From Cellvibrio sp. PSBB023 (GTDB taxonomy: Bacteria; Pseudomonadota; Gammaproteobacteria; Pseudomonadales; Cellvibrionaceae), in the NCBI RefSeq assembly GCF_002007605.1, contig NZ_CP019799.1:434001-498000 (forward strand): a stretch of DNA of 64,000 bases. Direction: 5' to 3'. Shown in pieces: positions 27,518 through 45,199 of the stretch. The position numbers and the translations under genes were made by a program. Below the pieces are notes generated by a model. It saw only the letters and a program-made list of their open reading frames with translations, was not told where the DNA came from and did not search any database. Every line of letters starts with the position of its first letter. The stretch's first letter is position 1.

Positions 27518-28396
27518 ATGACAAAACCGGTCATTGGTTTTATTGGGCTTGGCCTTATGGGCAGCAACATGGTTGAAAACCTGCAAAAGAAAGGCTTTGA
27601 GCCAATGGTTATGGACCTGAATAAGGAGGCTGTGGCGGCTGTTGTTGCTCGTGGTGCCACCGAGGCGGGTTCTGCCCGCGAACTGGCTGCTGCCTGTGAC
27701 ATTGTGATGCTTTGTCTGACCACTTCTGTTGTTGTGGAAAAGCTGGTTTACGCTGAAGACGGCATTCTGGCCGGTATAAAAGAAGGGGCTGTGGTGGTTG
27801 ATTTTGGAACCTCAATTCCAGCATCTACCCGAAAGATTGGTGTCGATCTCGCGGCGAAAGGGGCGGGGATGATAGATGCGGCTCTGGGGCGCACACCTGC
27901 TCATGCTAAAGATGGTTTGCTCAATATTATGGTTGGCGGCGACAAGGCGACTTTTGACAAGGTGCAGCCGGTACTTGCTATGCAGGGGGAGAATATTTTC
28001 TATCTGGGCGCGCTCGGCGCGGGTCATACCACCAAGCTGATCAATAACTTTATCGGCATGACAACTGTGACCGCCATGTCGCAAGCCTTTGCTGTGGCTG
28101 ACCGCGCCGGCATTGATCGCCAGCAGTTGTTCGACATTATGTCGACAGGCCCATCAAGCTCACCTTTCATGAAGTTTTGCAAAAACTACGCGGTAGATGG
28201 CGTCAGCGATTTGGGTTTCTCTATTGCCAATGCCAACAAGGATCTGGGGTATTTCCTGGCGATGGTCGACAATTTGGGGACTCGTGCCCCAATTGCTGAA
28301 GGCACCTCTGCTCACCTCCAGGCTGCTGTTGATGCTGGTATGGGCAACGGCAATGTGCCGGAAATCTTCGATTATTTCCTCACCTTAGGTAAGTAA
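27518..28396 (+). CDS. Beta-hydroxyacid dehydrogenase (3-HIBDH/GarR family), candidate DEH reductase
   Basis: A 292-residue NAD(P)-dependent enzyme. The dinucleotide motif is GFIGLGLMGSNMVENLQKKG, the substrate loop GAALGRTPAHAKDGLLNIM resembles DxxxSGG-type loops, and the catalytic Lys is in GAGHTTKLINNFIGM. Members reduce tartronate semialdehyde, succinic semialdehyde or 3-hydroxyisobutyrate-type substrates; relatives in alginate loci of marine bacteria are proposed to reduce 4-deoxy-L-erythro-5-hexoseulose uronate (DEH) to KDG. Placed before the TonB receptor and lyases and behind the shared operator, that role is plausible here. AGGAG precedes ATG 27518. A second, unrelated reductase (SDR) is in the same locus. 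Confidence 0.85.
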   Translation: MTKPVIGFIGLGLMGSNMVENLQKKGFEPMVMDLNKEAVAAVVARGATEAGSARELAAACDIVMLCLTTSVVVEKLVYAEDGILAGIKEGAVVVDFGTSIPASTRKIGVDLAAKGAGMIDAALGRTPAHAKDGLLNIMVGGDKATFDKVQPVLAMQGENIFYLGALGAGHTTKLINNFIGMTTVTAMSQAFAVADRAGIDRQQLFDIMSTGPSSSPFMKFCKNYAVDGVSDLGFSIANANKDLGYFLAMVDNLGTRAPIAEGTSAHLQAAVDAGMGNGNVPEIFDYFLTLGK

Positions 28397-28807: not shown

Positions 28808-31747
28808 ATGATGAAATTACGTACGAAGGTTTGTAGCTTGTCATTAGCCATTTCTGCTGTGTCATCCATGACCTATGCGCAAGACCAGGCAAGTGCGCTG
28901 GAAGAGGTGATGGTTACCGGTATTCGCGCTTCTTTGCAGGGTGCTATTGAAGAAAAGCGTGCTGCTTCTAACTTGATCGAAGTTATCCAATCAGAAGACA
29001 TAGGTAAGCTGCCTGACCAAAACCTGGCAGAAGTGCTGGAAAATATTACCGGCGTTCAGATCACCCGTGAGGGTGGTGTAGGTGTGGGTGTTCAGATTCG
29101 CGGTACCGATGCAAACCGTACTGAAATTAACGGTGTATCAACAGTGGGTTCGGGATCTGGCCGTACCGGTATCAGCTTTGAGGATGTGTCGGCAGCGATG
29201 ATCTCTGCTGTAGAAGTCACTAAAGCACCTGAAGCAAAAACCATTGAGGGTTCTGTCGGCGGCACGATTAACCTGCGCACCATTCGCCCGCTTGAGTTGA
29301 AAGAAACACTTGGCTCTATCCGTGTTCAGGGCGAGCACAGTGACCTTTCATCCGATGGTGGTTTGACTCCCCGCGTGTCAGGCACCTGGGGCGATAATTG
29401 GTCGACTAACGCGGGTGAGTTTGGTGCAGTCATCAGCGCCAGTTACGCAGAGATGGATGTGACGGATTTCCGCCCCCGCGTTGATCGCGACAATCTGGTA
29501 TTGGCAGGCCAAAACCCTACCGCTGACTACGATCACTTACCGGTTCAATTTCTGCAGCAAGATTATGACAATTATGAATATGAAACAAAAAACGTTTCAG
29601 CTTCATTTGAGTGGGCGCCAAACGACGACACAAAATTGTATTTTGATGCAGTTGTGAATGATCAGGAGCGCAGACAAGAGAGTCACCGTATACAGGCATC
29701 CGGCGTGGCCGATGTTGCCAGAACAGCACTCATTACGGATTATGAGACCATCAACTTTGGAACAATTCGTGGTGAAAATGGCCCGCAGGCTATAGGTTCG
29801 ATTCGCGCGGTAACCAAAGGCATATTGTTGCCACAGCAAACCGGTAATTTGGATCCTAACCTGCGTACCTCAACGGATACCAATGCGCGCGTGACCGACA
29901 GTAATATTTTCAGGTTGGGTGGCGAGTGGTCGGGTGATAAAACGTTTGTGCGCGTAGAGGCATCCACCTCGGACTCCGAAAGTAATACGCCTAACTTCAG
30001 CACTACGCTTAATTTTATCAATCCTAATTCCGCATCAACCAGCACCAGAATCGATAATGGTGTGCCTTTTGAGTTTGATCTAACCGGCGGCTCGCTGACC
30101 TTTGGTATTGCTCAAGGTCTGGCTACTACACCGACAAAAGAGCAGTTGCTGGATCCTGCGAACTATGTGATCGCATCGGTAAACCAAAGTAATAACCTGA
30201 TTAAAAACCAGGAAGACGCTTTCCGTGTTGATTTCCGCTACGATGTGGATATGGCCGGTATTACGTCAGTAGAAGTTGGTTATCGCTACAACGAAACATC
30301 CAGCCTTAAAGATGTGAGTGGTAGTAACTTCACTATTTCTGATCGCAGAAATTCGCCGACCGGCGATATGTTTGCCAGCGTTCTCTCTGCGGGCCCGGAT
30401 AACTTTAATGCGGCTGACGGCAGAAAATTATATGTAAAAGATTTTTTGTTGGTCGATCCGGCAAAATCATTTTCTGATCCGGATGCGGTGATGGCGGCGT
30501 TAAATGCGGCAATTGTTGCAAACAATACGGCGAATAATCGCACCCAGGCTCAAATTTCTTCACCAACCTCAACCGCTGCATCGTTCTTTGATATCTCAGA
30601 AGAAACTAACTCCCTGTATGGGCAGGTGAATTTTGAATACGGCATATTCCGTGGTAATGCCGGTTTGCGTTATCTGGAAACCAAGGTTAATTCGCGGGGC
30701 AACAGTGTCGTGAACGGTGTTGCCACACCGAATGTTGAAACGGGCAGTTATGACTTTGTGTTGCCACGTATAAACCTTGTGGCAGATGTGAGGGATGATG
30801 TCGTGGTTCGTGCGGGTTGGGGTAAAGATATTCGTCGCCCGGATTTTGATGACCTGTCTACGTCTGTCGCGTTTCAAACCAGTGAAAACCAGGCTGTTGC
30901 TATAGGTAATCCCGGGTTGGAACCGGAAGAAGTAACCTCATTTGATTTGTCGGCAGAATGGTATTTTGCGCCTTCCAGCGTATTAAGTGCCGGTATTTTT
31001 CACAAAGTCCGCACCGGTTTGCATGTGACTCAAACACAGGATGCTTATTCCGAGCCGGGCACTGGTTATCGTGATACTACTGCGCCCTGTGAAGCGGGTG
31101 GTATTTGGAACCCTATTGCTGTCCGTAATACCTTGGCGCCGCCAGAAGAAAATGGTCTACAAGGTATTTGTGTGCCTACCTCGTCAAAAGTAAATGGCGC
31201 AGGAGAGACCACGCAAAAAGGGATCGAGCTTGCTTTTCAATACGATCTTTCCGAGTTTGAAGATACGTTGGGTTGGGCCTCCGGTTTTGGTTTTATCACC
31301 AACTATACCTTCCAGGAATTCTCGGGCGGTGATACCTACCAAACGCCAACAAGTCGTGCTGATCAGGTATTTACCTTGTTAGGTCATCCGGATGTCACCT
31401 TGCGCGCGGCACTGCTTAACCTTTCTGAGAACGCCTATAACATTACCGCGTTCTACGAAAAGTACGATATTTCTGCGCGTATCCGTTACACCTGGCGCGA
31501 TGCCTTCAGTACCAACAATTACGGCAGTGGTAGTGATCCTTGGGGTTTCTACGCTATTCAGGAAGCCAGAGGACAGCTCAATGCCAGTATCAATTACGAT
31601 GTAACTGAAGCATTGAATATTGGTGTGGAAGCTATCAATTTGCTGCGCTCGGATACCCGACAATCTTGTGTGAATGAAGGTGGGTTGTTGTGTTTCCAAG
31701 GCCTCACGGATCGTCGTGTGACCTTCGGTGCAACCTACAAATTTTAA
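28808..31747 (+). CDS. TonB-dependent receptor for alginate oligosaccharides
   Basis: A 979-residue outer-membrane receptor. Signal peptide ends near SSMTYAQ; a TonB-box-like ALEEVMVTGIRAS follows. The plug domain shows EDIGKLPDQNLAEVLENITG and VQIRGTDANRTEINGVSTV, and the barrel ends in VTFGATYKF with the C-terminal aromatic residue. This belongs to the large carbohydrate-type receptors of Cellvibrio, Saccharophagus and Alteromonas. Position next to PL6 and PL17 genes and the perfect operator upstream imply import of alginate oligomers. GGAGGTGAAACC precedes ATG 28808. Two Cys pairs are visible in surface-loop regions. A terminator follows. Confidence 0.9.
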   Translation: MMKLRTKVCSLSLAISAVSSMTYAQDQASALEEVMVTGIRASLQGAIEEKRAASNLIEVIQSEDIGKLPDQNLAEVLENITGVQITREGGVGVGVQIRGTDANRTEINGVSTVGSGSGRTGISFEDVSAAMISAVEVTKAPEAKTIEGSVGGTINLRTIRPLELKETLGSIRVQGEHSDLSSDGGLTPRVSGTWGDNWSTNAGEFGAVISASYAEMDVTDFRPRVDRDNLVLAGQNPTADYDHLPVQFLQQDYDNYEYETKNVSASFEWAPNDDTKLYFDAVVNDQERRQESHRIQASGVADVARTALITDYETINFGTIRGENGPQAIGSIRAVTKGILLPQQTGNLDPNLRTSTDTNARVTDSNIFRLGGEWSGDKTFVRVEASTSDSESNTPNFSTTLNFINPNSASTSTRIDNGVPFEFDLTGGSLTFGIAQGLATTPTKEQLLDPANYVIASVNQSNNLIKNQEDAFRVDFRYDVDMAGITSVEVGYRYNETSSLKDVSGSNFTISDRRNSPTGDMFASVLSAGPDNFNAADGRKLYVKDFLLVDPAKSFSDPDAVMAALNAAIVANNTANNRTQAQISSPTSTAASFFDISEETNSLYGQVNFEYGIFRGNAGLRYLETKVNSRGNSVVNGVATPNVETGSYDFVLPRINLVADVRDDVVVRAGWGKDIRRPDFDDLSTSVAFQTSENQAVAIGNPGLEPEEVTSFDLSAEWYFAPSSVLSAGIFHKVRTGLHVTQTQDAYSEPGTGYRDTTAPCEAGGIWNPIAVRNTLAPPEENGLQGICVPTSSKVNGAGETTQKGIELAFQYDLSEFEDTLGWASGFGFITNYTFQEFSGGDTYQTPTSRADQVFTLLGHPDVTLRAALLNLSENAYNITAFYEKYDISARIRYTWRDAFSTNNYGSGSDPWGFYAIQEARGQLNASINYDVTEALNIGVEAINLLRSDTRQSCVNEGGLLCFQGLTDRRVTFGATYKF

Positions 31748-31800: not shown

Positions 31801-31836
31801 ATCGAATAATTTTTCCAGTTTACTTCAGGAGCTGTG

Positions 31837-32586
31837 ATGGACATGAAGGGTAAGGTATTCATCGTGGCGGGCGGTGGGCGCGACATTGGGCGTTCATGTG
31901 CCTTGGCTTTGGCGAAGCGTGGTGCCAGCATTTTATTAACCTATCACGCCAGTGCCGATGCGGCGCATGAGGTTGTGGCAGAAATAGAGCGTAGTGGAGC
32001 AAAAGCAGTTGCCCTTAAGGCAGACCTTACACAAGAGTCTGAAGCAAATGGTGTTGTGGCTGCTGCTATAAATGCTTTTGGGCATATTAATGGTTTGGTG
32101 CATGTGTCAGGTGGTTTGATTGAGCGCATTACTATTGATGCTATGCCGCTACAGCATTGGCGCAAGGTGATGGATGTTAATCTAACATCACTGTTTATGA
32201 TGGTGCGCGCCACCATACCGCACTTAAATGCGGGCGATAGTATTGTTACCTTTGCCTCGCAAGCAGGGCGCGATGGTGGCGGTAGTGGTGCGGTGGCTTA
32301 CGCCACATCCAAAGGTGCGATCATGTCTTTCACGCGCGGCCTGGCCAAAGAATTGGGTGCAAAAAATATCCGTGTTAACAGTGTTTGCCCTGGCATGATC
32401 AGCACCGGATTCCACGATCAATTTACCCAGAGCGATGTGCGTTCCAAAGTTGCGGCTGCAACGGCGTTAAAGCGTGAAGGCACTGCTGATGAAGTGGGGC
32501 AGTTGGTGGCATTTTTAATGTCTCGCGAAGCCTCATTCATGACCGGAAATTGTATTGATATTAATGGCGGTTTGTTGTTCTCGTAA
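31837..32586 (+). CDS. SDR-family oxidoreductase, candidate DEH reductase
   Basis: A 249-residue short-chain dehydrogenase. Cofactor motif VAGGGRDIGRSCALALAKRG, structural LVHVSGG, active site Ser in FASQAGRDGGG and YATSKGAIMSF (YxxxK), and the C-terminal DINGGLLFS. SDR enzymes of this type (for example A1-R of Sphingomonas A1) reduce DEH to 2-keto-3-deoxygluconate with NAD(P)H. It sits between the TonB receptor and the regulator in the alginate locus. AGGAG at 31827 supports ATG 31837 over the GTG at 31834. It ends at a large convergent hairpin. Confidence 0.87.
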   Translation: MDMKGKVFIVAGGGRDIGRSCALALAKRGASILLTYHASADAAHEVVAEIERSGAKAVALKADLTQESEANGVVAAAINAFGHINGLVHVSGGLIERITIDAMPLQHWRKVMDVNLTSLFMMVRATIPHLNAGDSIVTFASQAGRDGGGSGAVAYATSKGAIMSFTRGLAKELGAKNIRVNSVCPGMISTGFHDQFTQSDVRSKVAAATALKREGTADEVGQLVAFLMSREASFMTGNCIDINGGLLFS

Positions 32587-32702: not shown

Positions 32703-33455
32703 TTAATTGCGTGCTTGCGCCAAATAATCCAACGAGTATCTGCCTCTGTATTCTGAGGTCTTGCGGCGTATTTCATCCAGTGCGCGCTGTTCGCTGGCAT
32801 CGAACAACGAATTTATCAAGCGATTGAAGTGAAAGTGCATGGCTGCCCGCGCGGCATTTCCATCGTGCATCTTAAGTGCGTTGTAAATCGCTGTATGCTC
32901 TTCCATGCGCTTGTGAGCGCTTTGGTTACAAACACCTTTGTAGGCTTCGATAATGTCTTCATTGGTGCTGCGCAGATGCCAGAGCTTTTCTACTGCCACC
33001 AGGATGGCATTGTTGCGTGTCGCCTTGGAAATAATTAAATGGAACTGCTCGTCGGCATCCTCGGCGTTGGCTTCGTTTTCCATATCCACCAATGTTTGGT
33101 GCAGTGCAGCCAGTTCTTCTTCGGTAATCGTAGTGGCTGCCAGTGCAGCGGCTTCGCCTTCCACCAGTGCGCGTGCTTGAGTGAGTTCAAACGCACTGAT
33201 TTTCACAGCACTTTTTTCTGCAGACTGATTTTCTGCCACATAGATGCCTGAACCAGTTTTTACTTCCACGCGTTCGCGAACTTCCAACGCAATAATGGCT
33301 TCGCGGATAGTTGGTCGGCTTACGCCGTAATTGTCCGCAAGCTCACGTTCTGGCGGAAGCCTGCTGCCCGGAGGGTAAATACCGCTATCAATCAAATGTT
33401 CAATTTTTTCAACGATGCGCCAAAACAAGCGACGGTTTTTCATTTTTATCCCCAT
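32703..33455 (-). CDS. FadR-type GntR transcriptional regulator of the alginate locus
   Basis: A 250-residue protein with N-terminal winged helix (SGIYPPGSRLPPERELADNY, then GVSRPTIREAIIALE) and a C-terminal FCD (FadR) ligand domain with metal-type residues (DADEQFHLIISKATRN, HTAIYNALKMHDGNAARAAM). This branch includes ExuR, UxuR and KdgR-like regulators of uronate use, commonly released by a pathway intermediate. TTGGTAnnnCCAA-like palindromes lie in its own upstream region (33509, 33577) and before the reductase and TonB receptor genes, so it probably represses these units and itself. Ligand (DEH, KDG or KDPG) is not deducible. Confidence 0.87.
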   Translation of the reverse strand: MGIKMKNRRLFWRIVEKIEHLIDSGIYPPGSRLPPERELADNYGVSRPTIREAIIALEVRERVEVKTGSGIYVAENQSAEKSAVKISAFELTQARALVEGEAAALAATTITEEELAALHQTLVDMENEANAEDADEQFHLIISKATRNNAILVAVEKLWHLRSTNEDIIEAYKGVCNQSAHKRMEEHTAIYNALKMHDGNAARAAMHFHFNRLINSLFDASEQRALDEIRRKTSEYRGRYSLDYLAQARN

Positions 33456-33590: not shown

Positions 33591-33934
33591 TTATCATTTT
33601 TGGCAGCTATCTTTTGTGTTATTGGTCAAATTATTATTGACATACAGGTCTTAACTGTTAATATTTTGTGGTCAGTCACAATAATAGATACCAAGGCAAT
33701 GCCATGACCGTACAGCCATCGTTAAAGCGCAACAAATTTGCAGGTTCAGTGGCAAACCGCATTGCCACCATTGTTGTTGGTCGCGTTTGGGCCCCAATCG
33801 CTATTTCAATTCTTCTTTCTTCTATCCGTCGTTGCTATTGCTCGTGGAAGTTGGGCGAAACACCCACCTTATAGCGGTGCGTGTTTTGCCATTTTTAATT
33901 GGGTGTTGTTACACAATTTGTTGGGGTGATACCA
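33591..33934 (+). other. Leader of the alginate lyase operon, possibly with a decayed small ORF
   Basis: No confident gene. A short open frame from ATG 33704 (MTVQPSLKRNKFAGSVANRI) runs to 33874, and the adjacent frame gives a hydrophobic stretch, so a small membrane protein with a frameshift is conceivable but unsupported. The 3' end carries TTGGGGTGATACC, the ribosome site of the PL6 gene. Confidence 0.35.
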
Positions 33935-36187
33935 ATGCAGTGGTTTGGAAAAGCGTCTAGCGTTTTATTGATGGGTTTGTTGCTGAGTAGCAATCTCTTA
34001 GCCAAGGATATTGTGGTCGAAAATCAACAAGCATTTGCATCTGCATTGAAAACAGTTGTGCCGGGCGACGCGATAGTCTTAAAAAATGGTGTATGGTCAG
34101 ACTTTGAAATTGGTTTTTTTGCTGAAGGCAATGCTCTAAAGCCCATAACTCTCCGCGCTGAAACCCCGGGTAAGGTCATTATCTCTGGTCTATCTAATTT
34201 GCGCCTTGCGGGAAATTATTTGGTAGTAGAGGGGTTGGTGTTTAAAAATGGTTATACCCCAACCGGGGAAGTGATTTCATTCAAGCGTGACGATGAACAT
34301 CTGGCCAATTATTCTCGCGTCACTCAAGTTGTAATTGATAGCTTTAATAATCCGGATCGCGATTCGTCAGATTATTGGGTGGCTCTCTACGGTAAACATA
34401 ATCGCGTTGATCATAGTTACTTGGCAGGCAAGCGCAATTTGGGTGTGACTATGGCTGTGCGTTTGGATGGCGTTGCCAATCAACAGAATTATCATCAAAT
34501 TGATCATAATTATTTTGGCCCTCGCCCCATTCTTGGCTCCAATGGTGGTGAAACATTGCGAGTGGGCACCAGCACCTATTCGCTTACAGATTCGCATACG
34601 CTCATAGAAAACAATTATTTTGATCGCTGTAACGGCGAGGTGGAAATTGTTTCCATTAAGTCCGGTAAAAATATTGTTCGCAATAATGTTTTTTATGAGG
34701 GGCGTGGAGCCCTGACGCTACGCCATGGCAATGGTAATGTGGTGGAAGGTAATGTGTTTTTCGGTAATGGTGCTGAGCATACAGGTGGCATTCGGGTAAT
34801 TAATAGCGATCAAATAGTGCGAAACAACTATTTGGAAGGCTTGACTGGAACCCGTTTTGGCAGTGGTTTTGCGGTGATGAATGGCACAGTTGGTGCCTCG
34901 GTCAGTCGCTATAGCCAAGTGGTTAATGCAACTATTGAAAATAATACTTTTATCAATGTCGATAATATCCAATTGGGTGCGGGCAGCGATGCAGAACGAA
35001 ATGCGCCACCAGTAAATAGCCGGATGCAACGGAATTTGGTCTTCAGTGAATCAAACGCTGATGTGTTCAAGATCTTTGATGACATGAGTGGAATTGCCTT
35101 TGCGGACAACGTCTTGCACAAGGTGAAGAATCCCAATCTACAAACGGGCTTCAGCGCGAAAACCCTGACAATGAAACGCAATGCTGCCGGTTTATTAATG
35201 CCACAGGGCGATGCGTATAAACATATCGGTGTTGCTGCATCCTTAAAACCTATAAAAAAATCAGAGGTAGGCCCGCACTGGTACGAGAAGAATGTGGCTC
35301 AGGTTGAGTTTGATTCGGGTAAAACGATTAGTGTCGATGCCAATGCAGAGGATTCATTGTCCCATGCCATTGCGGCGGCTGAGTCGGGCGATCAGTTAGT
35401 CCTGGCTCCCGGTCAATATAAAATTACCAAGCTGCTGGCAATTAATAAGGTGTTGAGCATCCGCGCTAAACAAGCGGGAAAGGTTGTTTTATTGCCTGAG
35501 CGAACCACCTTATTTGAAATACAAAATGGCGGCTCTTTAAAACTGCACAATGTGACTATTGATGGTAGCAAAAGCCCGGATTTGGCAGGCAATATTCTGA
35601 TTCGCACACTCAAAAGCGGTATGTATATCAGCTATCGTTTAATCGTTGACAATGTCCGGGTAGAAAATCTAAACGTTAATCACTCGCATCACTTTTTAGA
35701 GGCTGGCAGTCGCAGTCTTGCAGAAAATATCCAGATTATGAATTCCAGCTTTAATAACATCACTGGCGACCTGTTGCGATTGGATAAAGAGACGGATGAT
35801 TTGGGTAATTACAACGCTGAAACCCTGGTGATGGATAAGAATCGCTTTACGAATATCGAAGGTGCATTAATCAGTCTGTATCGTGGTGGCACCGATGAAA
35901 GTACCTTTGGCCCCCATTTATTGTTCAGACACAACCATGTTGAAAATGTGGGGCAGGGTAAGCGCAATAAACGCAGCGCATCACTGTATTTACATGGTGT
36001 GCAATACACCCGGATTGCCAACAACCATATCAAGAATGCGGCAGGCATTGTGATTGAGCATACCGTGGGTGATCCTGATACTGAAATCCGCGCAAACAGA
36101 TTTACCAAGGTGCCCGCATTGCGGGTGGCGGAGCTTCACACCAAGGGCGAGTCCAGTGTGAAGTATGTAGATAATCGTGAAGACTGA
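33935..36187 (+). CDS. PL6-family alginate lyase
   Basis: A 750-residue secreted lyase. Signal peptide MQWFGKASSVLLMGLLLSS followed by NLLAKD. The N-terminal ~370 residues are a parallel beta-helix of chondroitinase B/PL6 type with GGETLRVGTSTYSLTDSHT and VEIVSIKSGKNIVRNN, which hold the family's Arg and Lys catalytic positions, plus GRGALTLRHGNGNVVEGN. The C-terminal half (from ~440) is a second beta-helix with HNxxxN-type repeats (FRHNHVENVGQGKRNKR), as in two-domain PL6 enzymes. It cuts alginate by beta-elimination outside or in the periplasm. GGGGTG decides ATG 33935 over ATG 33899. The PL17 gene follows after 53 bp. Confidence 0.9.
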   Translation: MQWFGKASSVLLMGLLLSSNLLAKDIVVENQQAFASALKTVVPGDAIVLKNGVWSDFEIGFFAEGNALKPITLRAETPGKVIISGLSNLRLAGNYLVVEGLVFKNGYTPTGEVISFKRDDEHLANYSRVTQVVIDSFNNPDRDSSDYWVALYGKHNRVDHSYLAGKRNLGVTMAVRLDGVANQQNYHQIDHNYFGPRPILGSNGGETLRVGTSTYSLTDSHTLIENNYFDRCNGEVEIVSIKSGKNIVRNNVFYEGRGALTLRHGNGNVVEGNVFFGNGAEHTGGIRVINSDQIVRNNYLEGLTGTRFGSGFAVMNGTVGASVSRYSQVVNATIENNTFINVDNIQLGAGSDAERNAPPVNSRMQRNLVFSESNADVFKIFDDMSGIAFADNVLHKVKNPNLQTGFSAKTLTMKRNAAGLLMPQGDAYKHIGVAASLKPIKKSEVGPHWYEKNVAQVEFDSGKTISVDANAEDSLSHAIAAAESGDQLVLAPGQYKITKLLAINKVLSIRAKQAGKVVLLPERTTLFEIQNGGSLKLHNVTIDGSKSPDLAGNILIRTLKSGMYISYRLIVDNVRVENLNVNHSHHFLEAGSRSLAENIQIMNSSFNNITGDLLRLDKETDDLGNYNAETLVMDKNRFTNIEGALISLYRGGTDESTFGPHLLFRHNHVENVGQGKRNKRSASLYLHGVQYTRIANNHIKNAAGIVIEHTVGDPDTEIRANRFTKVPALRVAELHTKGESSVKYVDNRED

Positions 36188-36240
36188 TCTTTATACACAA
36201 TGATTAACTGACTCAATAGTTGAATAATCTGGATTTTCCT

Positions 36241-38484
36241 ATGAATAAAGCAATGATAACGATGAATAAAAGCCTGCTTTCTGCAATAAGTGTAATAGTG
36301 ATTTTTATCTGCAATAGTTTCGGCACTGCTGTAGCGGCTGAACAGCAAGCAGTAAAACAACATCCCTCGCTGGTCATTACTGCTCAGGACGTAGTTGACA
36401 TGCGTTCTGAAATTGCACGCGATGGTCGCTTTAAAAAAGAATTTCAGGATAAAAAATCACAGCTTGATAGTAAGCTGGCACTGCCCAAACAAGTACCTGT
36501 GCCGCGTGATTCCGGTGGTGGTTTTACCCATGAGGTACATAAGAATAATGCGCAGAGCATGTACGATGCAGCAATAATTTATCAATTAACGGGGGAGGCA
36601 AAATACGCAAACTATGTGCGCGATATGTTATTCCTCTATGCCGATATGTACCCCGGGTTACCCTTGCACCCGCAACGTAAAACTGATTCAGTGATTTCGG
36701 CAGGAAAGTTGTTTTGGCAGAACCTGAATGAATCTGTGTGGCTGGTTTATGTTATCCAGGCTTACGACGCAATATTGCCAGCATTAACGACCAGTGAACG
36801 TAAAACCATTGAAACGGGCATACTGCGCCCGGTGGCATTATTTTTATCTGAAGGATCGCCCCATACATTTAATACCATTCACAATCATGCGACCTGGGCT
36901 ACTTGTGCAGTAGGTATGACAGGCTATGTACTCAATGAACCGCAGTGGGTGGAACAGGCACTCTATGGTTCTGATAAATCCGGTAAAGGTGGTTTTCTTC
37001 GCCAGTTGGATGAATTATTTTCACCCCAGGGTTACTACAATGAGGGCCCTTATTACCAGCGTTATGCCTTGCTGCCATTTGTCACCTTCGCAAAAGCAAT
37101 AGCGGTAAATGAACCGCAACGCAATATATTTTCCTATCGTGATGGCATTGTTTTAAAAGCCGTTAACACCACCATCCAACTGAGCTATAACAATTTATTT
37201 TTGCCGATCAATGATGCGATCAAGGACAAAGGCCTGAATACCATTGAGCTGGTAAATGGTGTTGCCATTGCTTACTCGGTAACAAAGGATACCGGTTTAC
37301 TATCAATTGCCAAACAGCAGGATAAGGTGATTCTGACTGGTGACGGCCTGCGTATTGCACAGGCATTGGATCAGCATTTGGAGCAGCCTTACCCGTTTAC
37401 CTCCATGGTGTTTCAGGATGGCGCCAAGGGTGATGAAGGTGGCCTTGTTGTTATGCGCGAGAAAGATCAAGCACTGGTATTCAAAGCTACCGCCCAAGGT
37501 ATGGGACATGGCCATTTTGATAAATTGAATTGGCTCTTTTATGACAAAGGCGCGGAAATTATTTCTGATTATGGTTCGGCGCGTTTTCTAAATGTGGAAG
37601 CAAAATTTGGCGGCCGCTATTTACCGGAAAATGACACCTATGCCAGTCAAACCATTGCACATAACACCCTGGTAGTTGATGAGACTAGTCATTTTAATGG
37701 CGACACCAGTATTGGAAATGAAAACCATCCAGACCTGCTTTATTTCGCAAATAAGGACGGGCTAAAAATTTCGGCAGCGCGTGTGGACAATGCCTATTCG
37801 GATGTCGAGTTTGTGCGCACCATGGCCCAGATCCATCACAAGCAATTAGCCCACCCGGTGGTATTGGATGTCTTGACGGTGCACTCAAACAACGTACATC
37901 AACTGGATTTGCCATTGCACTATAAAGGGCATTTGATGGATACCAATGTGGCGCTGGATACGGCAACGCAACGCTTGGCTCCTTTGGGCAAAAAAAATGG
38001 CTATGAACATTTATGGTTGAAGGCAACCGCCAAAGCAGCTATGCCTGTGAGTCAAATTACCTGGTTACATGATAATGGTCGTTTTTATTCGCTGAGCACA
38101 ATTAGCCGTGCGGATATGAAAATACTGTTCACTCAAATAGGTGCCAATGACCCGCTATTCAATTTACGCACTGAAAATGCATTTATATTACGGATTCCCA
38201 GTGCAAAGCAGGCCGCATTTGTGAGTGTGCTTGAACCTCACGGTGAATATAACCCGGTGAGCGAATTAACCTTTACTGCCAATAGCCAGGTAAAAAATAT
38301 TACTCACCAGCAAGTGGGCGATATAGATCAGGTGAGCCTTGAATTTATCAATGGGCCTAAACTACTTTTGTTATTAAACAATGCAAAGGCATTTGATGAG
38401 AAAAAACTCAACAAGGTGAAGATTGGTGGAAAGCAATATTCATTTCGTGGACGTTTCCACCTGATAGACCTGACAGACAACTAA
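36241..38484 (+). CDS. PL17 oligoalginate lyase
   Basis: A 747-residue exo-acting lyase with N-terminal signal segment (LLSAISVIVIFICNSFG). An (alpha/alpha) toroid holds TIHNHATWATCAVGM (catalytic Asn-His) and YYNEGPYYQRYALLPF (catalytic Tyr); the heparinase II/III-like beta-sandwich begins with VVMREKDQALVF and includes GMGHGHFDKLNWLFYD (metal-site/catalytic His). These match the residues reported for Saccharophagus Alg17C. It releases the unsaturated monouronate from alginate oligomers. In-frame start options are TTG 36220, ATG 36241 and ATG 36262; 36241 is a compromise. The kdgF gene starts 40 bp downstream. Confidence 0.9.
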   Translation: MNKAMITMNKSLLSAISVIVIFICNSFGTAVAAEQQAVKQHPSLVITAQDVVDMRSEIARDGRFKKEFQDKKSQLDSKLALPKQVPVPRDSGGGFTHEVHKNNAQSMYDAAIIYQLTGEAKYANYVRDMLFLYADMYPGLPLHPQRKTDSVISAGKLFWQNLNESVWLVYVIQAYDAILPALTTSERKTIETGILRPVALFLSEGSPHTFNTIHNHATWATCAVGMTGYVLNEPQWVEQALYGSDKSGKGGFLRQLDELFSPQGYYNEGPYYQRYALLPFVTFAKAIAVNEPQRNIFSYRDGIVLKAVNTTIQLSYNNLFLPINDAIKDKGLNTIELVNGVAIAYSVTKDTGLLSIAKQQDKVILTGDGLRIAQALDQHLEQPYPFTSMVFQDGAKGDEGGLVVMREKDQALVFKATAQGMGHGHFDKLNWLFYDKGAEIISDYGSARFLNVEAKFGGRYLPENDTYASQTIAHNTLVVDETSHFNGDTSIGNENHPDLLYFANKDGLKISAARVDNAYSDVEFVRTMAQIHHKQLAHPVVLDVLTVHSNNVHQLDLPLHYKGHLMDTNVALDTATQRLAPLGKKNGYEHLWLKATAKAAMPVSQITWLHDNGRFYSLSTISRADMKILFTQIGANDPLFNLRTENAFILRIPSAKQAAFVSVLEPHGEYNPVSELTFTANSQVKNITHQQVGDIDQVSLEFINGPKLLLLLNNAKAFDEKKLNKVKIGGKQYSFRGRFHLIDLTDN

Positions 38485-38524: not shown

Positions 38525-38872
38525 ATGACGACGAGTAAAGACTTTATATTCAGTGATGAAACACCGAAAGTCGATTTAGGTGGTGGCATGGTTCGCCAGG
38601 TTCTGGGTTATAACCAGGAGCTTATGGTGGTGAAAGTATGGTTTGCCGCGGGTACAGAAGGCTATGTGCACAGTCATGTTCACTCGCAGGTTGCCTACAT
38701 TGCCAAGGGCGTTTTTGATGTAAACCTTGGTGGTGTTATTAAGCGTATGAAAGAGGGCGACAGCTTTTTTGTCGCACCTTATGTTGAGCACGGTGCAGTG
38801 TGTATTGAAGAAGGTATTTTGATTGATACGTTTAGTCCCTGTCGTGAAGATTTTTTAGAGGCTAAGGTATGA
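38525..38872 (+). CDS. kdgF: KdgF: unsaturated uronate linearising cupin
   Basis: A 115-residue single-cupin protein. Metal ligands are visible in YVHSHVHSQVAYIAKGVFDV (HxHxxxQ) and APYVEHGAVCIEEGILIDTF (His). KdgF catalyses conversion of the 4,5-unsaturated uronate released by lyases to its linear ketone form on the way to DEH. GAGG lies 8-9 bp before ATG 38525. The stop overlaps the MFS start by four bases (ATGA at 38869). Confidence 0.9.
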   Translation: MTTSKDFIFSDETPKVDLGGGMVRQVLGYNQELMVVKVWFAAGTEGYVHSHVHSQVAYIAKGVFDVNLGGVIKRMKEGDSFFVAPYVEHGAVCIEEGILIDTFSPCREDFLEAKV

Positions 38873-40148
38873 GTCATAAAACTGTAAAAGGTCTGCGCTG
38901 GCTGGTTATTACCTTGGTAGGTATTGCCACCGTCATAAATTATATCGACCGTACAGCGCTCTCTGTGATGTGGCCGGGTATTGCCGAGGAGTTAGGTCTT
39001 GGTAAGCAGGATTACGCCAACATCATTACCGTCTTTATGATTTCTTATGCGATTGGTCAATCCTTGTTTGGCAAAATCTTTGATGCCTTGGGAACGCGCA
39101 TTGGTTTTCTGTTATCGATTGTTGTTTGGTCTATTTCTATTGCGCTGCATGCGGTTGCCAGTTCGGTGATGAGCTTCAGTGTATTTCGCTTTTTCCTGGG
39201 CTTGGGGAAGCGGGTAACTGGCCAGGTGCAACCAAGGCCAATGCCGAGTGGTTTCCCGTACGTGAGCGCGCTTTGGCGCAAGGGATATTTGGTGCGGGAG
39301 CTTCCATGGGCTCCATTATTGCACCGCCCTTAATTGCGTTCATGTATGCTTTTCTCGGTTGGAAGGCAACCTTCCTGGTCATTGGCGGGCTTGGTTTCTT
39401 ATGGGTTATTCCCTGGTTAATTGTGTATAAATCTTCACCAGATTCTCACCCCTGGATCACGCCGGAAGAGCGCGAATATATTTTATCGGGGCAGCGGGTA
39501 GCTGAATCGGCAGAGCAGGAATATGTTCCGGGGTGGTTGGATTTATTAAAACATCGCCAAAGCTGGGGTGTGATTGCGGCGCGTTTTTTTATCGACCCGA
39601 TTTGGTGGTTGTTTGTGGCTTGGTTGCCGTTGTACCTGAATGAGAAATTTGGTTTTGATGTAAAGCAAATCGGTATTTTTGCATGGGTGCCTTATGTCGG
39701 TGCTGCTATTGGCGCCTTGTTTGGCGGGTGGCTGGCCGGGCAATTAATAAAACGCAGTTGGTCAGTCAATAAAGCGCGTAAAACAGTGATCACTTTGAGT
39801 TGTGTGATTATGTTGCCTGCACTGATTTTAACCTCCATGGCGAATACTCCATTGCTGGCGGTGTTATTGATTGCCGTTATTTTGTTCGGCTTTCAGGCGG
39901 CGATTAGTAATATTCAAACCATGCCCAGTGATTTTTTCTCGGGTAAAAGTGTAGGTTCATTGGCGGGTATGAGTGGAACCTCGGCAGTACTGAGTGTGAT
40001 TATCAGTATTCAGTTGGTGCCTATGTTGACGGCGGGTGGTAATTACGGCCCGTTTTTTGTGTTGGGTGCGGTATTAGTACCCCTGGTGTTGGCCTCTATA
40101 TTTTTGGCTGGGCGCATTGAGCCTGTGGCAAAACCCCAGAGTAAATAA
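38869..40148 (+). pseudogene. ACS-family MFS uronate transporter, frameshifted
   Basis: Joined across one frameshift this is a ~426-residue anion:cation symporter of the ExuT/GarP type: VGIATVINYIDRTALSVMWP in helix 1, then GLG/EAGNWPGATKANAEWFP in the conserved loop after helix 4, then 12-helix continuation to GRIEPVAKPQSK. At 39204-39207 the run is GGGG where GGGGG would keep LGLGEAGNWPGA in frame; as given, frame 1 ends at 39333 and the rest continues in the frame visible from 39126 to 40148. Either a real one-base deletion or a homopolymer reading error. Expected role is uptake of DEH or a related monouronate through the inner membrane. Confidence 0.85.
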
Positions 40149-41113: not shown

Positions 41114-41278
41114 GCCGCTGATTTTTTAGTGGCTATGTCTCGTTAAAAAAATCGCCAGCGCTATTCGCAAAAAAATTCAGGTAATAGATGAGTCCAGTCG
41201 TGCATTGCACTGCTGCGGATAACTATTGCCTGTTATATGGAACCAAATAAGTATTCGGTTAATACCAGGAAGAAACAG

Positions 41279-42098
41279 ATGAATGCTCAACTGCAAAAAC
41301 CAAAACCCATCGTCATTGCTAATTGGAAGCTCAATGGCGGTATAGATCTGATTTGTACATCAGTCGCATCATTTATCGGTAAGCATTTTGATGCACAAAT
41401 CGCAATTTGTCCTCCCTATATTTATATGCGTGACATGCTGACATTCCTGCAGCATTCAGAAATTAGTATTGGCAGCCAGAATGTCAGCAAATTTGAATCG
41501 GGTGCTTATACCGGAGAGACATCTGCACAAATGCTAAAGCAGGCAGGTTGCAAATTGTGTTTGATTGGTCATTCAGAGCGGCGCGCTATGTTTGGCGAAA
41601 GTAATCTCAGCTGCCAAATTAAAGTATGCCGCGCTTAATCATGGCTTATTGCCCGTGTTATGTATTGGTGAAAACCTGGAAGAGCGCGATGCAAATATTA
41701 CTAAAGCGGTTATTTTTCGCCAGCTCAGTGAAGGTTTGCACAATATTAATCTGGAAGGGAAAGAGTTATGTATCGCCTACGAACCTGTGTGGGCAATTGG
41801 CACAGGGCTTTCCGCAACACCTGCTATGGCACAGAAGATACATCAGTTTATTCGTCGCGAATTGGCTGTGTTATTGGGTAAAGAAACTGCTGGGCGAATC
41901 CGATTGTTATATGGCGGCAGTGTCAATAAAACCAATGCAAGGGAATTGTTGGCACAAGCGGATATCGATGGCTTGTTGGTAGGTGGTGCCAGCCTTGATC
42001 CCGGCCATTTTTTAGCAATTTGCCAATTGGCATCTGAGCAGGCAATGCTGAAACAACATGCCGTTGTAACAGAGAAACAAGCTGCGGTCTCACACTAA
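41279..42098 (+). pseudogene. tpiA: Triosephosphate isomerase, frameshifted
   Basis: Both halves are clearly TPI. Frame 1 has VIANWKLNGG (Lys), LIGHSERRAMFGESN (His); it stops at 41638. Frame 2, open to 42098, has ISAAKLKYAALNHGLLPVLC, CIAYEPVWAIGTG (catalytic Glu) and LYGGSVNKTNARELL with DGLLVGGASLD. The frames change between about 41596 and 41612 inside the ESNxxxSAAK region, consistent with loss of one or a few bases. All catalytic residues exist but not in one frame. AGGAAG precedes ATG 41279. It interconverts the two triose phosphates. The class II aldolase gene follows after 18 bp. Real mutation or reading error cannot be told apart here. Confidence 0.87.
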
Positions 42099-42116
42099 TC
42101 GGAGCAGATAAAGATC

Positions 42117-43196
42117 ATGAATAATCTTGTAAGTGTAGTCCCCGCCGGTGTCGCAACCGGTGATCAGGTACAAATGTTATTTCGCATGGCAAAACAACAG
42201 GGATTTGCTTATCCCGCTGTGAATGTGGTGGGCACAAACTCTATTAATGCCACATTGGAGGCGGCCCAAAAAATTAATTCCCCGGTGATAGTGCAGTTAT
42301 CCCAAGGTGGTTCCGCCTTTTTTTCAGGTAAGGGGTTGTCATTGCCAGGGCTGCAAAATTCGGTATTGGGTGCGGTGGCCGCTGCAAAATATGTGCATTG
42401 CGTTGCAGAAGCCTATGGCGTGCCTGTTATTTTGCATACGGATCATGCCGCGAAAAAATTACTGCCGTGGATCGACGGTTTGCTTGACGCCGGTGAACAA
42501 TTTTTTACTGAAACCGGAAAACCGTTATTCAGTTCCCATATGCTGGATTTGTCGGATGAGTCGCTGGAACACAATATCGATATTTGCGCGGGCTATTTAA
42601 CCCGTATGCACAAATTGGGTATGACGCTGGAAATTGAACTCGGGTGCACTGGTGGTGAAGAAGATGGCGTAGATAACTCCGCCATAGACAGCTCCGCGCT
42701 CTATACCCAACCCGAGGATGTAGCCTATGCCTATGAGCGCTTGAGTGCAATTAGCCCGCGGTTCACCATCGCCGCGTCCTTCGGCAATGTGCATGGTGTT
42801 TATAAACCCGGCAATGTAAAGCTAAGGCCGGAAATCCTTAAAAACTCACAAGCCTATGTGAGTGAAAAATGTAATTTGCCACACAACAGTTTGGATTTTG
42901 TTTTTCATGGTGGTTCCGGTTCTGACCCTGCAGAAATCACCGAGTCCATTACTTACGGTGTCGTTAAGATGAATATTGATACCGATACCCAATGGGCAGC
43001 ATGGCAGGGGGTGATGGATTACTACAAGACGAATCAGGATTACTTACAAAGCCAAATTGGCAACCCTGGTGGCGCCGATGCCCCCAATAAAAAATATTAC
43101 GATCCACGGGTGTGGTTGCGTAGCCTTGAAGAGAGCATGGTGTCGCGGTTGCAGCAATCTTTCCGCGATTTGAACTGTGTTAATCGCTACAGCTAA
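42117..43196 (+). CDS. Class II fructose-1,6-bisphosphate aldolase
   Basis: A 359-residue zinc aldolase of the FbaA (class IIA) type, same length as E. coli FbaA. Motifs: VILHTDHAAKKLLPWIDGLL (Zn His), HMLDLSDESLEHN, LEIELGCTGGEEDGVDNS (Zn Glu), ASFGNVHGVYKPGNVKLRP (Zn His) and FVFHGGSGSDPAEI, VKMNIDTDTQWA for phosphate binding. It condenses dihydroxyacetone phosphate and glyceraldehyde 3-phosphate to fructose-1,6-bisphosphate. It lies between TPI (18 bp) and FBPase (6 bp), so the three form one unit, most sensible in the gluconeogenic direction. Confidence 0.94.
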   Translation: MNNLVSVVPAGVATGDQVQMLFRMAKQQGFAYPAVNVVGTNSINATLEAAQKINSPVIVQLSQGGSAFFSGKGLSLPGLQNSVLGAVAAAKYVHCVAEAYGVPVILHTDHAAKKLLPWIDGLLDAGEQFFTETGKPLFSSHMLDLSDESLEHNIDICAGYLTRMHKLGMTLEIELGCTGGEEDGVDNSAIDSSALYTQPEDVAYAYERLSAISPRFTIAASFGNVHGVYKPGNVKLRPEILKNSQAYVSEKCNLPHNSLDFVFHGGSGSDPAEITESITYGVVKMNIDTDTQWAAWQGVMDYYKTNQDYLQSQIGNPGGADAPNKKYYDPRVWLRSLEESMVSRLQQSFRDLNCVNRYS

Positions 43197-43202
43197 ACGG
43201 TT

Positions 43203-44276
43203 ATGAGTAATCCCATGAATCAATATTTCACAAGGTATATGCCCATGCGTGATTTGCAAAACTGCTTCAACCAGGATGCTGTTGCTGTGGAGCTGCAGAG
43301 TGTTATTACCAACCTGCTGGATGTGACCAAAGAGATCGCTCTGGCCGTTCGTCAGGCGGCCTTGGCCGGCGTTTTGGGGGCGGTGCAGGTTCAAAATGTA
43401 CAGGGTGAAACGCAAAAAAAATTGGATGTGATCGCCAACGATTTATTGAAAGCTGCCTTAAAGAAAAATATTCATGTGCGTGCACTGGCTTCCGAAGAGG
43501 ATGAGCATGTGATTGCCTTGCACAATTCAGGGCGATATGTCGTTGCATTTGATCCGTTGGATGGCTCATCGAATATAGATGTGAATGGCCAGGTGGGTAC
43601 TATTTTCACTGTCTATCCTGCATTGGATAATGTTGCAGCAGATAGCCCCTCGCAATTTTTTCAGCAGGGGAAAAATCAGCTGTGCGCAGGTTATGTGCTT
43701 TATGGTCCATCAACAGCGCTGGTGTTAACCAATGGTGGCCCGACACGCTGCTTTACGCTTGACTCCCATCACAATGAATTCGTATTAACAAATGCAAAAT
43801 TGCAGGTGCCACAAAACACTGAAGAATTTTCCATCAATATGGCAAACCAGCGTTTTTGGAGTGATAACTTCAAACGCTATATTGCAGATTTATTGGCCGG
43901 TGAAACCGGTGTGCGCGGCAAGCGCTTTACGATGCGGTGGAATGCCGCTATGGTGGGTGATGTGCACCGGGTGTTAACTCGCGGTGGTATTTTTATGTAC
44001 CCGAATGATAGCCGTCACCCGCGCCAACCTGCTAAATTGCGCCTGCTTTATGAAGCCAACCCTATGGCCATGTTGGTTGAAAATGCCGGTGGAAAAGCAT
44101 GCAGTGAAGCCACCAATAAAATCCAGCGCATTTTGGATATAGTGCCTGACGCATTGCATCAGCGTGTGTCTGTGATTCTGGGGGCGGCTAATGAAGTGGA
44201 TATTTGTATCGTGTATTTGTTCAAGCGCGATCAGGTGGACGAGTCGGTTTTGATTGAGAATGAAGAAGCCTATTAG
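43203..44276 (+). CDS. fbp: Class I fructose-1,6-bisphosphatase
   Basis: A ~357-residue enzyme. The metal and substrate motifs are QKKLDVIANDLL, ALASEEDEHVI and VVAFDPLDGSSNIDVNGQVG, followed by GKRFTMRWNAAMVGDVHRVL and RGGIFMYPNDSRHPRQPAKL. It hydrolyses FBP to fructose-6-phosphate and commits carbon to gluconeogenesis. Several in-frame ATGs (43203, 43215, 43239, 43245) are possible; AAGG before 43239 makes the shorter form attractive. It follows the aldolase by 6 bp. A dedicated FBPase inside a polysaccharide utilisation locus is unusual. Confidence 0.94.
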   Translation: MSNPMNQYFTRYMPMRDLQNCFNQDAVAVELQSVITNLLDVTKEIALAVRQAALAGVLGAVQVQNVQGETQKKLDVIANDLLKAALKKNIHVRALASEEDEHVIALHNSGRYVVAFDPLDGSSNIDVNGQVGTIFTVYPALDNVAADSPSQFFQQGKNQLCAGYVLYGPSTALVLTNGGPTRCFTLDSHHNEFVLTNAKLQVPQNTEEFSINMANQRFWSDNFKRYIADLLAGETGVRGKRFTMRWNAAMVGDVHRVLTRGGIFMYPNDSRHPRQPAKLRLLYEANPMAMLVENAGGKACSEATNKIQRILDIVPDALHQRVSVILGAANEVDICIVYLFKRDQVDESVLIENEEAY

Positions 44277-44338: not shown

Positions 44339-45199
44339 ATGATTGTAGATTCTCATGTACATATTTGGGCGCCTCATTGCGCCGATCGCCCTTGGCCTAA
44401 TCCTCAAACGGCAAAACCACACAAGGCTTATCCGGGGATTAGTGAGCATGGCATGAGCAAGCAGATGCTGGTGGCAGCGATGGATATCGCCGGTGTAGGT
44501 CGCGCTATTTTAATTCCACCATCGTGGGAAGGACATTACAACGATTTGGCTCTGGATGCAGTGCAATCCTATCCTGAGCGTTTTGCGGTCATGGGGCGTA
44601 TTTTTTTAGAAGAACCTATGCCTGAAGCGCAGTTCAATCTGTGGCGACAGCAGCAGGGAATAGTGGGAGTACGCTGTATTTTTCACAGCCCGCGCTACCA
44701 ACAATTATTGTGTGATGGTGCATTTGATTGGTTTTGGCAAATCGCTGCAAGCAACAAGGTGCCTGTTACCCTGATGATGCCCGGTTTAAAAAATGCGGCA
44801 CTCATCATCGAACACCTGTTAAAAACATTCCCGGAATTAAAACTCTCATTGGATCATGTGAATATTCAGGGTGCTGATAAAGATCAGGTCGCTACGCAAG
44901 TCAAACAATTTTCTGCCTTGGCGCATTATGACAATTTCGCCATAAAGGCCAGTGCTGTGCCCAGTTGGTCGCAAGAGTCTTTTCCATTTAAAGATACCCA
45001 TGACCATCTAAAGCGCTTGTTCGATGCTTTTGGGCCGCAGCGCACGTTTTGGGGCAGTGATTTCACCCGGCTGGATATTGATTATCGCCGCGCCGTTTGC
45101 CAATTCACTGAAGCAATGAATTGGCTCGACGGGCGTGATCTGGAATGGGTCATGGGACGTGGTGTTTGCGAATGGCTGGGCTGGCCTATTAACGCATAA
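44339..45199 (+). CDS. Amidohydrolase-2 family protein
   Basis: A 286-residue TIM-barrel hydrolase of the amidohydrolase 2 (predicted dicarboxylate/lactone hydrolase) family. The N-terminal metal motif is IVDSHVHIWAPH; later KLSLDHVNIQG and TFWGSDFTRLDIDY with the conserved Asp close the barrel. Relatives include fuconolactonase, 2-pyrone-4,6-dicarboxylate hydrolase and sugar lactonases. It is 62 bp after fbp on the same strand and is the last gene of the alginate block; action on a lactone of a deoxy-hexonate is one idea, but the substrate is not deducible. Confidence 0.75.
   Translation: MIVDSHVHIWAPHCADRPWPNPQTAKPHKAYPGISEHGMSKQMLVAAMDIAGVGRAILIPPSWEGHYNDLALDAVQSYPERFAVMGRIFLEEPMPEAQFNLWRQQQGIVGVRCIFHSPRYQQLLCDGAFDWFWQIAASNKVPVTLMMPGLKNAALIIEHLLKTFPELKLSLDHVNIQGADKDQVATQVKQFSALAHYDNFAIKASAVPSWSQESFPFKDTHDHLKRLFDAFGPQRTFWGSDFTRLDIDYRRAVCQFTEAMNWLDGRDLEWVMGRGVCEWLGWPINA

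What the first reader, a model, noticed from the sequence alone, without database searches (positions are those of the whole stretch)
41279..44276. Dedicated gluconeogenic trio (TPI, class II aldolase, FBPase) inside an alginate locus
Alginate loci normally stop at KDPG cleavage. Here kdgK is followed on the same strand by tpiA, an FbaA-type aldolase (18 bp gap) and class I fbp (6 bp gap). The order matches the route from glyceraldehyde-3-phosphate to fructose-6-phosphate, so the locus seems to couple polysaccharide breakdown with hexose-phosphate synthesis. The KDPG aldolase that links the two halves is not in the window. Gene identities are seen; co-regulation with alginate is inferred.
Basis: partly seen in the sequence, partly recalled or inferred. 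Interest (0 to 1): 0.8.

Follow-up and report, generated by a model that had tools for sequence, protein, structure and literature searches.

The report
Gluconeogenesis genes inside an alginate locus
A seaweed-polysaccharide degradation cassette in a Cellvibrio bacterium also carries genes that turn the three-carbon end product back into six-carbon sugar phosphate; one of the three looks broken in this assembly, and similar, separately assembled combinations occur in alginate, pectin and rhamnose loci of other bacteria.

Summary
The genes are there, with one correction. fba (42117-43196) and class I fbp (43203-44276) are intact, but tpiA (41279-42098) is frameshifted, as is the MFS transporter upstream. 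Near-identical intact versions of both proteins exist in public data, so the breaks are recent or errors. The genome holds a second intact tpi-fba-fbp trio, a third tpiA, one KDPG aldolase 18 kb outside the window, and no PFK.
The trio belongs to an accessory alginate cassette: Cellvibrio OA-2007 shares the PL6-to-amidohydrolase block; relative G005 lacks the region. In Cellvibrionaceae, 10 of 12 genomes with both PL6 and an fba match have them within 10 kb, with class I FBPase in Cellvibrio and class III in Gilvimarinus and Saccharophagus. Eight loci of Pseudoalteromonas, Glaciecola and Catenovulum show PL6, kdgK, eda or tpi, and fba, seven with fbp. Alginate-locus aldolases are not one clade (AU p 1.5e-5).
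Best reading: uronate-derived triose phosphate is turned to fructose-6-phosphate inside the catabolic cassette. The arrangement is not wholly new: a 2018 figure labels eda, fba and fbp in a Pseudoalteromonas alginate locus. Co-regulation is untested.

The parts
27518..28396 (+). GarR-like NAD-binding dehydrogenase, 292 aa, upstream end of the cassette
   Evidence: PF03446 and PF14833; a block covering most of this gene is shared with OA-2007
28808..31747 (+). TonB-dependent receptor
   Evidence: TIGR01782 over cut-off; not part of the blocks shared with OA-2007
31834..32586 (+). SDR, putative DEH reductase
   Evidence: PF13561; shared with OA-2007. The substrate is inferred
32703..33455 (-). 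GntR-family regulator
   Evidence: best NCBIfam match ExuR, under cut-off; shared with OA-2007
33899..36187 (+). PL6 alginate lyase
   Evidence: PF14592 E 1e-122
36220..38484 (+). PL17-type oligoalginate lyase
   Evidence: PF07940 and PF05426; NF042990 E 1.5e-255 but under its cut-off
38525..38872 (+). KdgF-like cupin
   Evidence: ORF, PF07883; position between PL17 and MFS as in the Pseudoalteromonas alginate loci
38869..40148 (+). hexuronate-type MFS transporter, frameshifted in this assembly
   Evidence: two ORFs in different frames; OA-2007 copy open; near-identical intact P0248
40160..41113 (+). kdgK, 2-keto-3-deoxygluconate kinase
   Evidence: NF052444 E 8.5e-82, under cut-off; Ka/Ks 0.07 against OA-2007
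41195..41230 (+). block conserved with OA-2007 in the kdgK-tpiA gap; possible regulatory site
   Evidence: 36 bp, 94% identical; its GTGCATTGCAC core is not upstream of tpi in the other loci compared
41279..42098 (+). tpiA, triose-phosphate isomerase, frameshifted in this assembly
   Evidence: near-identical intact P0006
42117..43196 (+). fba, class IIA fructose-bisphosphate aldolase
   Evidence: PF01116, TIGR01520, residues 3-355 of 359 align with a solved class 2 aldolase
43203..44276 (+). fbp, class I fructose-1,6-bisphosphatase
   Evidence: PF00316 and PF18913, NF006779, PDB 7k74 over residues 27-343 of 357
44339..45199 (+). amidohydrolase (PF04909), last gene of the block shared with OA-2007; function unknown

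Best explanation
This is an alginate-utilisation cassette with a built-in gluconeogenic exit. Shown: gene identities by family match, the broken tpiA and MFS frames, the second trio, absence of PF00365-type PFK, and recurrence in other genera. Inferred: PL6 and PL17 release unsaturated uronate, KdgF and SDR give KDG, KdgK makes KDPG, and the single Eda (encoded elsewhere) gives pyruvate and glyceraldehyde-3-phosphate. TPI (in this strain the intact paralogues) makes DHAP; Fba and Fbp turn the triose phosphates into fructose-6-phosphate. A cell growing on uronate alone gets no hexose phosphate from its substrate, and without PFK these enzymes can only run net towards hexose. So the cassette brings its own supply for cell wall, polysaccharide, pentose and NADPH needs.
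For: No PFK (PF00365) in the own genome, and none of the 21 Cellvibrio genomes is among the 110 of 144 family genomes with a match. The only two class II aldolases (PF01116) and two class I FBPases (PF00316) found in this genome lie in tpi-fba-fbp trios; the second trio has kdgK-like, fructuronate-reductase-like and pectinesterase-like genes within about 6 kb (names by eye). OA-2007 shares the window's 33828-45179 in order, and the GarR, SDR and GntR blocks. 10 of 12 Cellvibrionaceae genomes with both PL6 and an fba match have them within 10 kb; 0.18 genomes expected under uniform placement. In 8 of those 10 a class III FBPase sits next to FBA, although 0 of 369 evenly drawn Gammaproteobacteria have that family. 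Glaciecola L094 and five Pseudoalteromonas loci have kdgK-eda-fba-fbp; Catenovulum L187 has kdgK-tpi-fba-fbp. 14 alginate-locus FBAs (of 18 identified) are not one clade (AU p 1.5e-5; at least 5 changes on a 38-row tree; an earlier tree had been seen before), which points to repeated assembly.
Against: tpiA and MFS are frameshifted here, so this copy may be decaying. No expression data. The 165-bp gap before tpiA carries a block found only in OA-2007, so the trio could have its own promoter. 25 of 37 PL6 genomes in the family had no fba match at E 1e-60, and none of the five such loci read shows FBA or class I FBP: the module is optional. In Microbulbifer ALW1 the fba gene is numbered beside pgk and far from the alginate genes (table passages of PMC8967155). 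PFK absence does not explain the module outside Cellvibrio: 7 of 8 g13 (Gilvimarinus) genomes and G122 (Saccharophagus) have a PFK match. Two of 12 genomes (G023, G112) have PL6 and FBA apart.
Confidence: 0.75

Rival explanations
1. Decaying acquired cassette: the locus was gained laterally, never became important, and is now eroding; the trio does nothing in this strain.
For: Frameshifts in tpiA and MFS. Elsewhere in the window 0 of 20 matched G005 proteins are interrupted (18 informative), so a generally high indel rate is not seen. The cassette lies in a region beside tRNA-Ala with a resolvase gene, GC 0.44-0.47 against 0.51 before and 0.48 after, absent from G005.
Against: The other cassette genes have open frames. 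Ka/Ks against OA-2007 stays low, also behind the break in tpiA (0.084, against 0.070-0.072 for FBP, PL17 and PL6; synonymous sites are near saturation). Near-identical intact TPI and MFS proteins exist.
Confidence: 0.3
2. Sequencing or assembly error: the cassette is fully intact and both frameshifts are artefacts.
For: Near-identical intact TPI (P0006: 100% and 98.7% to the halves) and MFS (P0248: 100% and 99.7%) among public proteins; their sources are not shown.
Against: None of 18 informative orthologues elsewhere in the window is interrupted; neither break lies in a long homopolymer.
Confidence: 0.4
3. The trio mainly serves an EDEMP-type cycle (triose phosphate back to glucose-6-phosphate for NADPH), as in Pseudomonas putida, rather than net gluconeogenesis for biosynthesis.
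For: No PFK, one Eda. The EDEMP pathway of PFK-lacking pseudomonads is stated in PMC8669468 (passages).
Against: Does not by itself explain linkage to uronate and rhamnose loci, or its presence in genomes that have PFK.
Confidence: 0.2
4. Chance neighbour: a housekeeping fba-fbp pair was inserted beside the alginate genes with no functional link.
For: Extra fba-fbp pairs exist at other places in Cellvibrio (L121, L131).
Against: Recurrence in six genera with two FBPase classes and non-monophyletic FBAs; genus-level chance about 2e-4 under uniform placement, 3 of 5 genera.
Confidence: 0.04

Closest known systems
Alginate PUL 1 of Pseudoalteromonas carrageenovora 9T (PMC6262041, section 18 with Fig. 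4 legend read)
   Same: PL6, PL17, KdgF, MFS, KdgK, SDR, GntR and garR named together with fba and class 1 fbp in one figure of the cluster; gene synteny stated as conserved in 19 Pseudoalteromonas genomes
   Different: it carries eda, and no tpi is named; the section's text says nothing about what fba and fbp do. The window has a (broken) tpi and no eda
Alginate locus of Saccharophagus degradans (G122/L143) and Gilvimarinus (L136-L142)
   Same: PL6, PL17, small gene, SDR, kdgK and fba on one strand, then an FBPase
   Different: the FBPase is class III (PF06874), a different family; S. degradans has a different tpi after it
tpi-fba-fbp trio of the genus Cellvibrio (own copy at about 3.003-3.006 Mb)
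   Same: same three genes, same order; FBA 76% and FBP 61% identical
   Different: present in 18 of 21 genus genomes, with fructuronate-reductase-like and pectinesterase-like genes in the region in 7 of the 18 (own copy), not in an alginate locus
EDEMP cycle of Pseudomonas putida (PMC8669468, passages)
   Same: logic of PFK-less carbon cycling through gluconeogenic enzymes
   Different: as far as I recall, its genes are not grouped with a polysaccharide locus (not tested)

Membership tests
Alginate utilisation locus (proteobacterial) | endo- and exo-alginate lyases (PL6, PL17) | tested here: met
   activity not tested
Alginate utilisation locus (proteobacterial) | KdgF, DEH reductase and KdgK in the same cluster | tested here: met
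   cupin, SDR, KdgK; KdgK is under the NCBIfam cut-off and substrates are inferred
Alginate utilisation locus (proteobacterial) | KDPG aldolase in the cluster (found in some loci, not all) | tested here: not met
   single PF01081 match, 18 kb outside the window
Alginate utilisation locus (proteobacterial) | working transporter | tested here: inconclusive
   MFS frameshifted, intact relative exists; TonB receptor open
Alginate utilisation locus (proteobacterial) | induction by alginate | not testable with these tools
   no expression data
Class IIA fructose-bisphosphate aldolase | over the TIGR01520 cut-off, full length | tested here: met
   solved relatives
Class I fructose-1,6-bisphosphatase | over the NF006779 cut-off, both Pfam domains | tested here: met
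Triose-phosphate isomerase | one open frame over the whole TIM barrel | tested here: not met
PFK-less Entner-Doudoroff metabolism | no 6-phosphofructokinase (PF00365), Eda present | tested here: met
   PfkB-type kinases and edd were not tested

The most novel reading that the evidence does not exclude
A general design rule: catabolic loci for sugars that end only in triose phosphate (alginate and pectin uronates through KDPG, rhamnose through DHAP) carry their own fructose-bisphosphate aldolase, mostly with a fructose-1,6-bisphosphatase, assembled independently several times and even with an unrelated class III FBPase that none of 369 sampled Gammaproteobacteria has. In Cellvibrio, which lacks PFK, the upper gluconeogenic link may be supplied mainly by such cassettes, so hexose-phosphate synthesis would be switched on by polymer sensing rather than as housekeeping.
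Probability: 0.45. Interest if true: 0.65.

Novelty: new variant of a known kind. Interest (0 to 1): 0.5.

Why it matters
Polysaccharide loci are usually drawn as ending in pyruvate and glyceraldehyde-3-phosphate entering glycolysis. If the cassette also brings the enzymes that go back up to hexose phosphate, the loci are complete growth modules and not only catabolic ones. That would help explain how they transfer between genera, and gives a simple test of whether central-metabolism genes are under polymer-specific control. The class III FBPase in Gilvimarinus and Saccharophagus is a natural replacement experiment that supports the function.

Tried and rejected
Considered and rejected. (1) 'Only chromosomal copies': rejected. 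(2) Absence of PFK as the reason for locus-borne FBA: holds for Cellvibrio but fails for Gilvimarinus (7 of 8 have a match) and Saccharophagus. (3) One transferred ancestral alginate module: not favoured for FBA by the AU test. (4) The 571- and 601-aa proteins next to FBA in two Pseudoalteromonas rhamnose loci as a new FBPase: no NCBIfam match for either, no Pfam match and no solved-structure relative for the 601-aa one; the translations look like a many-segment membrane transporter, so not pursued. (5) GTGCAWTGCAC as a shared operator: only upstream of the window and OA-2007 trios among those compared, and 3 matches with up to one mismatch in the window against 2.77 expected. (6) Promoter/terminator scan: 2 promoter-like sites against 12.0 expected, 11 terminator-like against 8.0: nothing to build on.

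Dropped rows. In one search the KdgF, MFS 3' and KdgK rows were out of frame through my slicing and the amidohydrolase had no finite Ks; KdgK was redone, KdgF and MFS 3' failed again there and no Ka/Ks was obtained for them. The MFS 3' half was also out of frame in the protein comparison; the correct comparison is. In one search two of 20 rows are uninformative (an antisense ORF, and the paralogous FBA). In the trees, L144 FBP and the L143 and L131 TPIs are very long branches and were not used. In the tree only 3 of the 7 Gilvimarinus alginate loci and part of the Cellvibrio trios were included.

Not tested: GlpX-type FBPase, class I aldolases, PfkB-type kinases and edd in the own genome; the regulator.
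Full report
What is there. The window is G000:C1:434001-498000 of a 4,705,304-bp single-contig genome. It belongs to Cellvibrio: the genus group contains Cellvibrio sp. OA-2007 (G006, contig lengths agree), the closest counterpart of the cassette, and a 4,576,573-bp genome, the size I recall for C. japonicus. From 27.5 to 45.2 kb lie a GarR-like dehydrogenase, a TonB receptor, an SDR, a divergent GntR regulator, PL6, PL17, a KdgF-like cupin, an MFS transporter, kdgK, tpiA, fba, fbp and an amidohydrolase. fba and fbp are full length, pass their NCBIfam cut-offs and align with solved class II aldolases and class I FBPases.

Correction. tpiA is not one open frame. Its halves are in ORFs 41237-41638 and 41565-42098; aligned with OA-2007 the window is two bases shorter at the break, and one base shorter in the MFS gene, with the same effect. 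Public proteins include near-identical intact versions: P0006 for TPI (116 residues at 100%, 155 at 98.7%) and P0248 for MFS (112 at 100%, 312 at 99.7%); their sources are not shown. Ka/Ks against OA-2007 is 0.028 for the tpiA 5' part, 0.084 for the 3' part, 0.044 for fba, 0.070 for fbp, 0.072 for PL6 and 0.070 for PL17, and 0.071 for kdgK, with synonymous sites near saturation. So the breaks are recent or artefacts. Elsewhere in the window, 0 of 20 proteins of relative G005 matched in more than one piece at 60% identity or more, 18 of them informative. I cannot decide between error and decay.

Other copies. Searches of the genome gave two class I FBPases (PF00316), two class II aldolases (PF01116), three TPI genes counting the broken one (PF00121), one KDPG aldolase and no PFK (PF00365). 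The second FBPase, FBA and a TPI form an open trio at about 3.003-3.006 Mb; FBA is 76% and FBP 61% identical to the window's. A trio of this kind is in 18 of 21 genus genomes (in G017 the FBP is cut by a contig end). In 7 of the 18, counting the own copy, fructuronate-reductase-like and pectinesterase-like genes are in the region read (these two names are by eye). In the four Gilvimarinus second-trio loci read (L147-L150) tpi-fba-fbp lies beside UxuB-like, GntR and kdgK-like genes; UxaC was confirmed by Pfam in L147. G012, G013 and G018 had neither an FBP nor an FBA match.

The cassette is accessory. OA-2007 shares window 33828-45179 in order, plus the GarR, SDR and GntR blocks, with a different TonB receptor. 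Among the 21 genus genomes only the own genome and OA-2007 have PL6. In G005 synteny stops just after tRNA-Ala (window 16,556) and resumes at 45,349, so the region behaves as an island; GC is 0.44-0.47 inside, 0.51 before and 0.48 after.

Conservation in the family. Of 144 Cellvibrionaceae genomes, 52 have an FBA match (E up to 1e-60; 8 of the 52 only at 43-46% identity) and 37 have PL6 (E up to 1e-30); 12 have both, and in 10 of these 12 the genes are within 10 kb. Uniform placement would give 0.18 genomes; counting genera, 3 of 5, P about 2e-4 (rounded genome sizes). Beside FBA the FBPase is class I in the two Cellvibrio and class III (PF06874) in seven Gilvimarinus and one Saccharophagus genome (two of the eight scanned against Pfam directly). 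Class III FBPase was found in 9 of 144 family genomes, 8 in this position and the ninth (G112) elsewhere, and in 0 of 369 Gammaproteobacteria drawn evenly. Results against: 25 of the 37 PL6 genomes had no FBA match at that threshold (other FBA types are not excluded), and the five such loci I read (L151-L155) show no FBA or class I FBP by tblastn. G023 has PL6-...-kdgK-eda without FBA, with a distant FBP (38%) upstream; G112 has PL6 and FBA far apart.

Conservation outside the family. I took 25 genomes out of the 80 loci, all found by similarity to the window's FBP, so this is not a random sample. 10 of 25 had FBA (E up to 1e-100), 18 genes in all; 17 regions were read, the 18th being L094. 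Eight of 18 are in alginate loci: Glaciecola L094 and Pseudoalteromonas L174-L178 with PL6 and kdgK-eda-fba-fbp; Catenovulum L187 with PL6-kdgF-MFS-kdgK-tpi-fba-fbp; L188 with PL6-kdgF-MFS-kdgK-tpi-fba and no fbp seen. Three of 18 are beside rhamnulose-1-phosphate aldolase and rhamnose isomerase (L183, L185, L186; families confirmed in L038, the same region as L183, and in Cellvibrio L131). Five have kdgK or kdgF-eda in the region with no PL6, PL7 or PL17 match; two have neither. FBP is adjacent or near in 15 of 18, TPI in 5 of 18.

Repeated assembly. In a 38-row FBA tree the 14 alginate-locus rows included (of 18 identified) are not one clade (AU p 1.5e-5) and need at least 5 changes of state. 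I had seen an earlier tree before naming the group, and the backbone is unresolved, so the exact number of assemblies is open.

Mechanism. Uronate growth yields pyruvate and glyceraldehyde-3-phosphate but no hexose phosphate (textbook pathway). Without PFK, Fba plus Fbp can only run net towards fructose-6-phosphate. The cassette therefore appears to include the upward route. Co-transcription with the alginate genes is not shown: the kdgK-tpiA gap is 165 bp and carries a 36-bp block conserved only with OA-2007 among the loci compared. In Glaciecola fba follows eda by 18 bp, and in five of seven Gilvimarinus loci it follows kdgK by about 30-45 bp, the other two ORF calls overlapping; in S. degradans the gap is about 210 bp.

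Literature. PMC6262041 (section 18 read whole) labels eda, fba and fbp in the Fig. 4 legend of the P. carrageenovora alginate PUL and states synteny in 19 Pseudoalteromonas genomes; the section's text does not discuss fba or fbp. Passages found by search words in PMC8967155, PMC4866713, PMC2386152, PMC7874173, PMC6554313, PMC5306329 and PMC8669468 showed no statement of such a module; these papers were not read whole. Searches listed no other paper that I could see discussing it; the library holds open-licence papers only, so this is weak evidence of absence.

Change on checking.

Noticed in passing
window 16438-16805 and 18420-19016: tRNA-Ala followed about 250 bp later by a partial copy of its 3' end and downstream sequence, then a resolvase-family gene: likely edge of the genomic island that holds the alginate cassette.
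   Followed up: partly
L131:4025-10845 (G005), L183 (Catenovulum sediminis), L185 and L186 (Pseudoalteromonas): fba, in some with fbp, lies beside rhamnulose-1-phosphate aldolase and rhamnose isomerase, whose product is DHAP.
   Followed up: partly
L136-L143: Class III FBPase (PF06874, 'Firmicute' type) in Gilvimarinus and Saccharophagus alginate loci, in 0 of 369 evenly drawn Gammaproteobacteria.
   Followed up: yes
L185:10781-12496 and L186:7622-9427: 571- and 601-aa predicted membrane proteins in rhamnose loci with no NCBIfam match; the L186 one also has no Pfam match and no solved-structure relative. Possibly an uncatalogued rhamnose transporter.
   Followed up: partly
Cellvibrio genomes G012, G013, G018: No match to the class I FBP or FBA queries although two of the three are at least 96% complete; how they make hexose phosphate is open.
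   Followed up: no
L121:8200-11576 and L131:8768-11951: Another kind of fba-fbp pair in Cellvibrio G004 and G005, each followed by a GH43-like gene.
   Followed up: no
L144:11536-13703 (G023): PL17 is split over two ORFs in the alginate locus of another Cellvibrionaceae genome.
   Followed up: no
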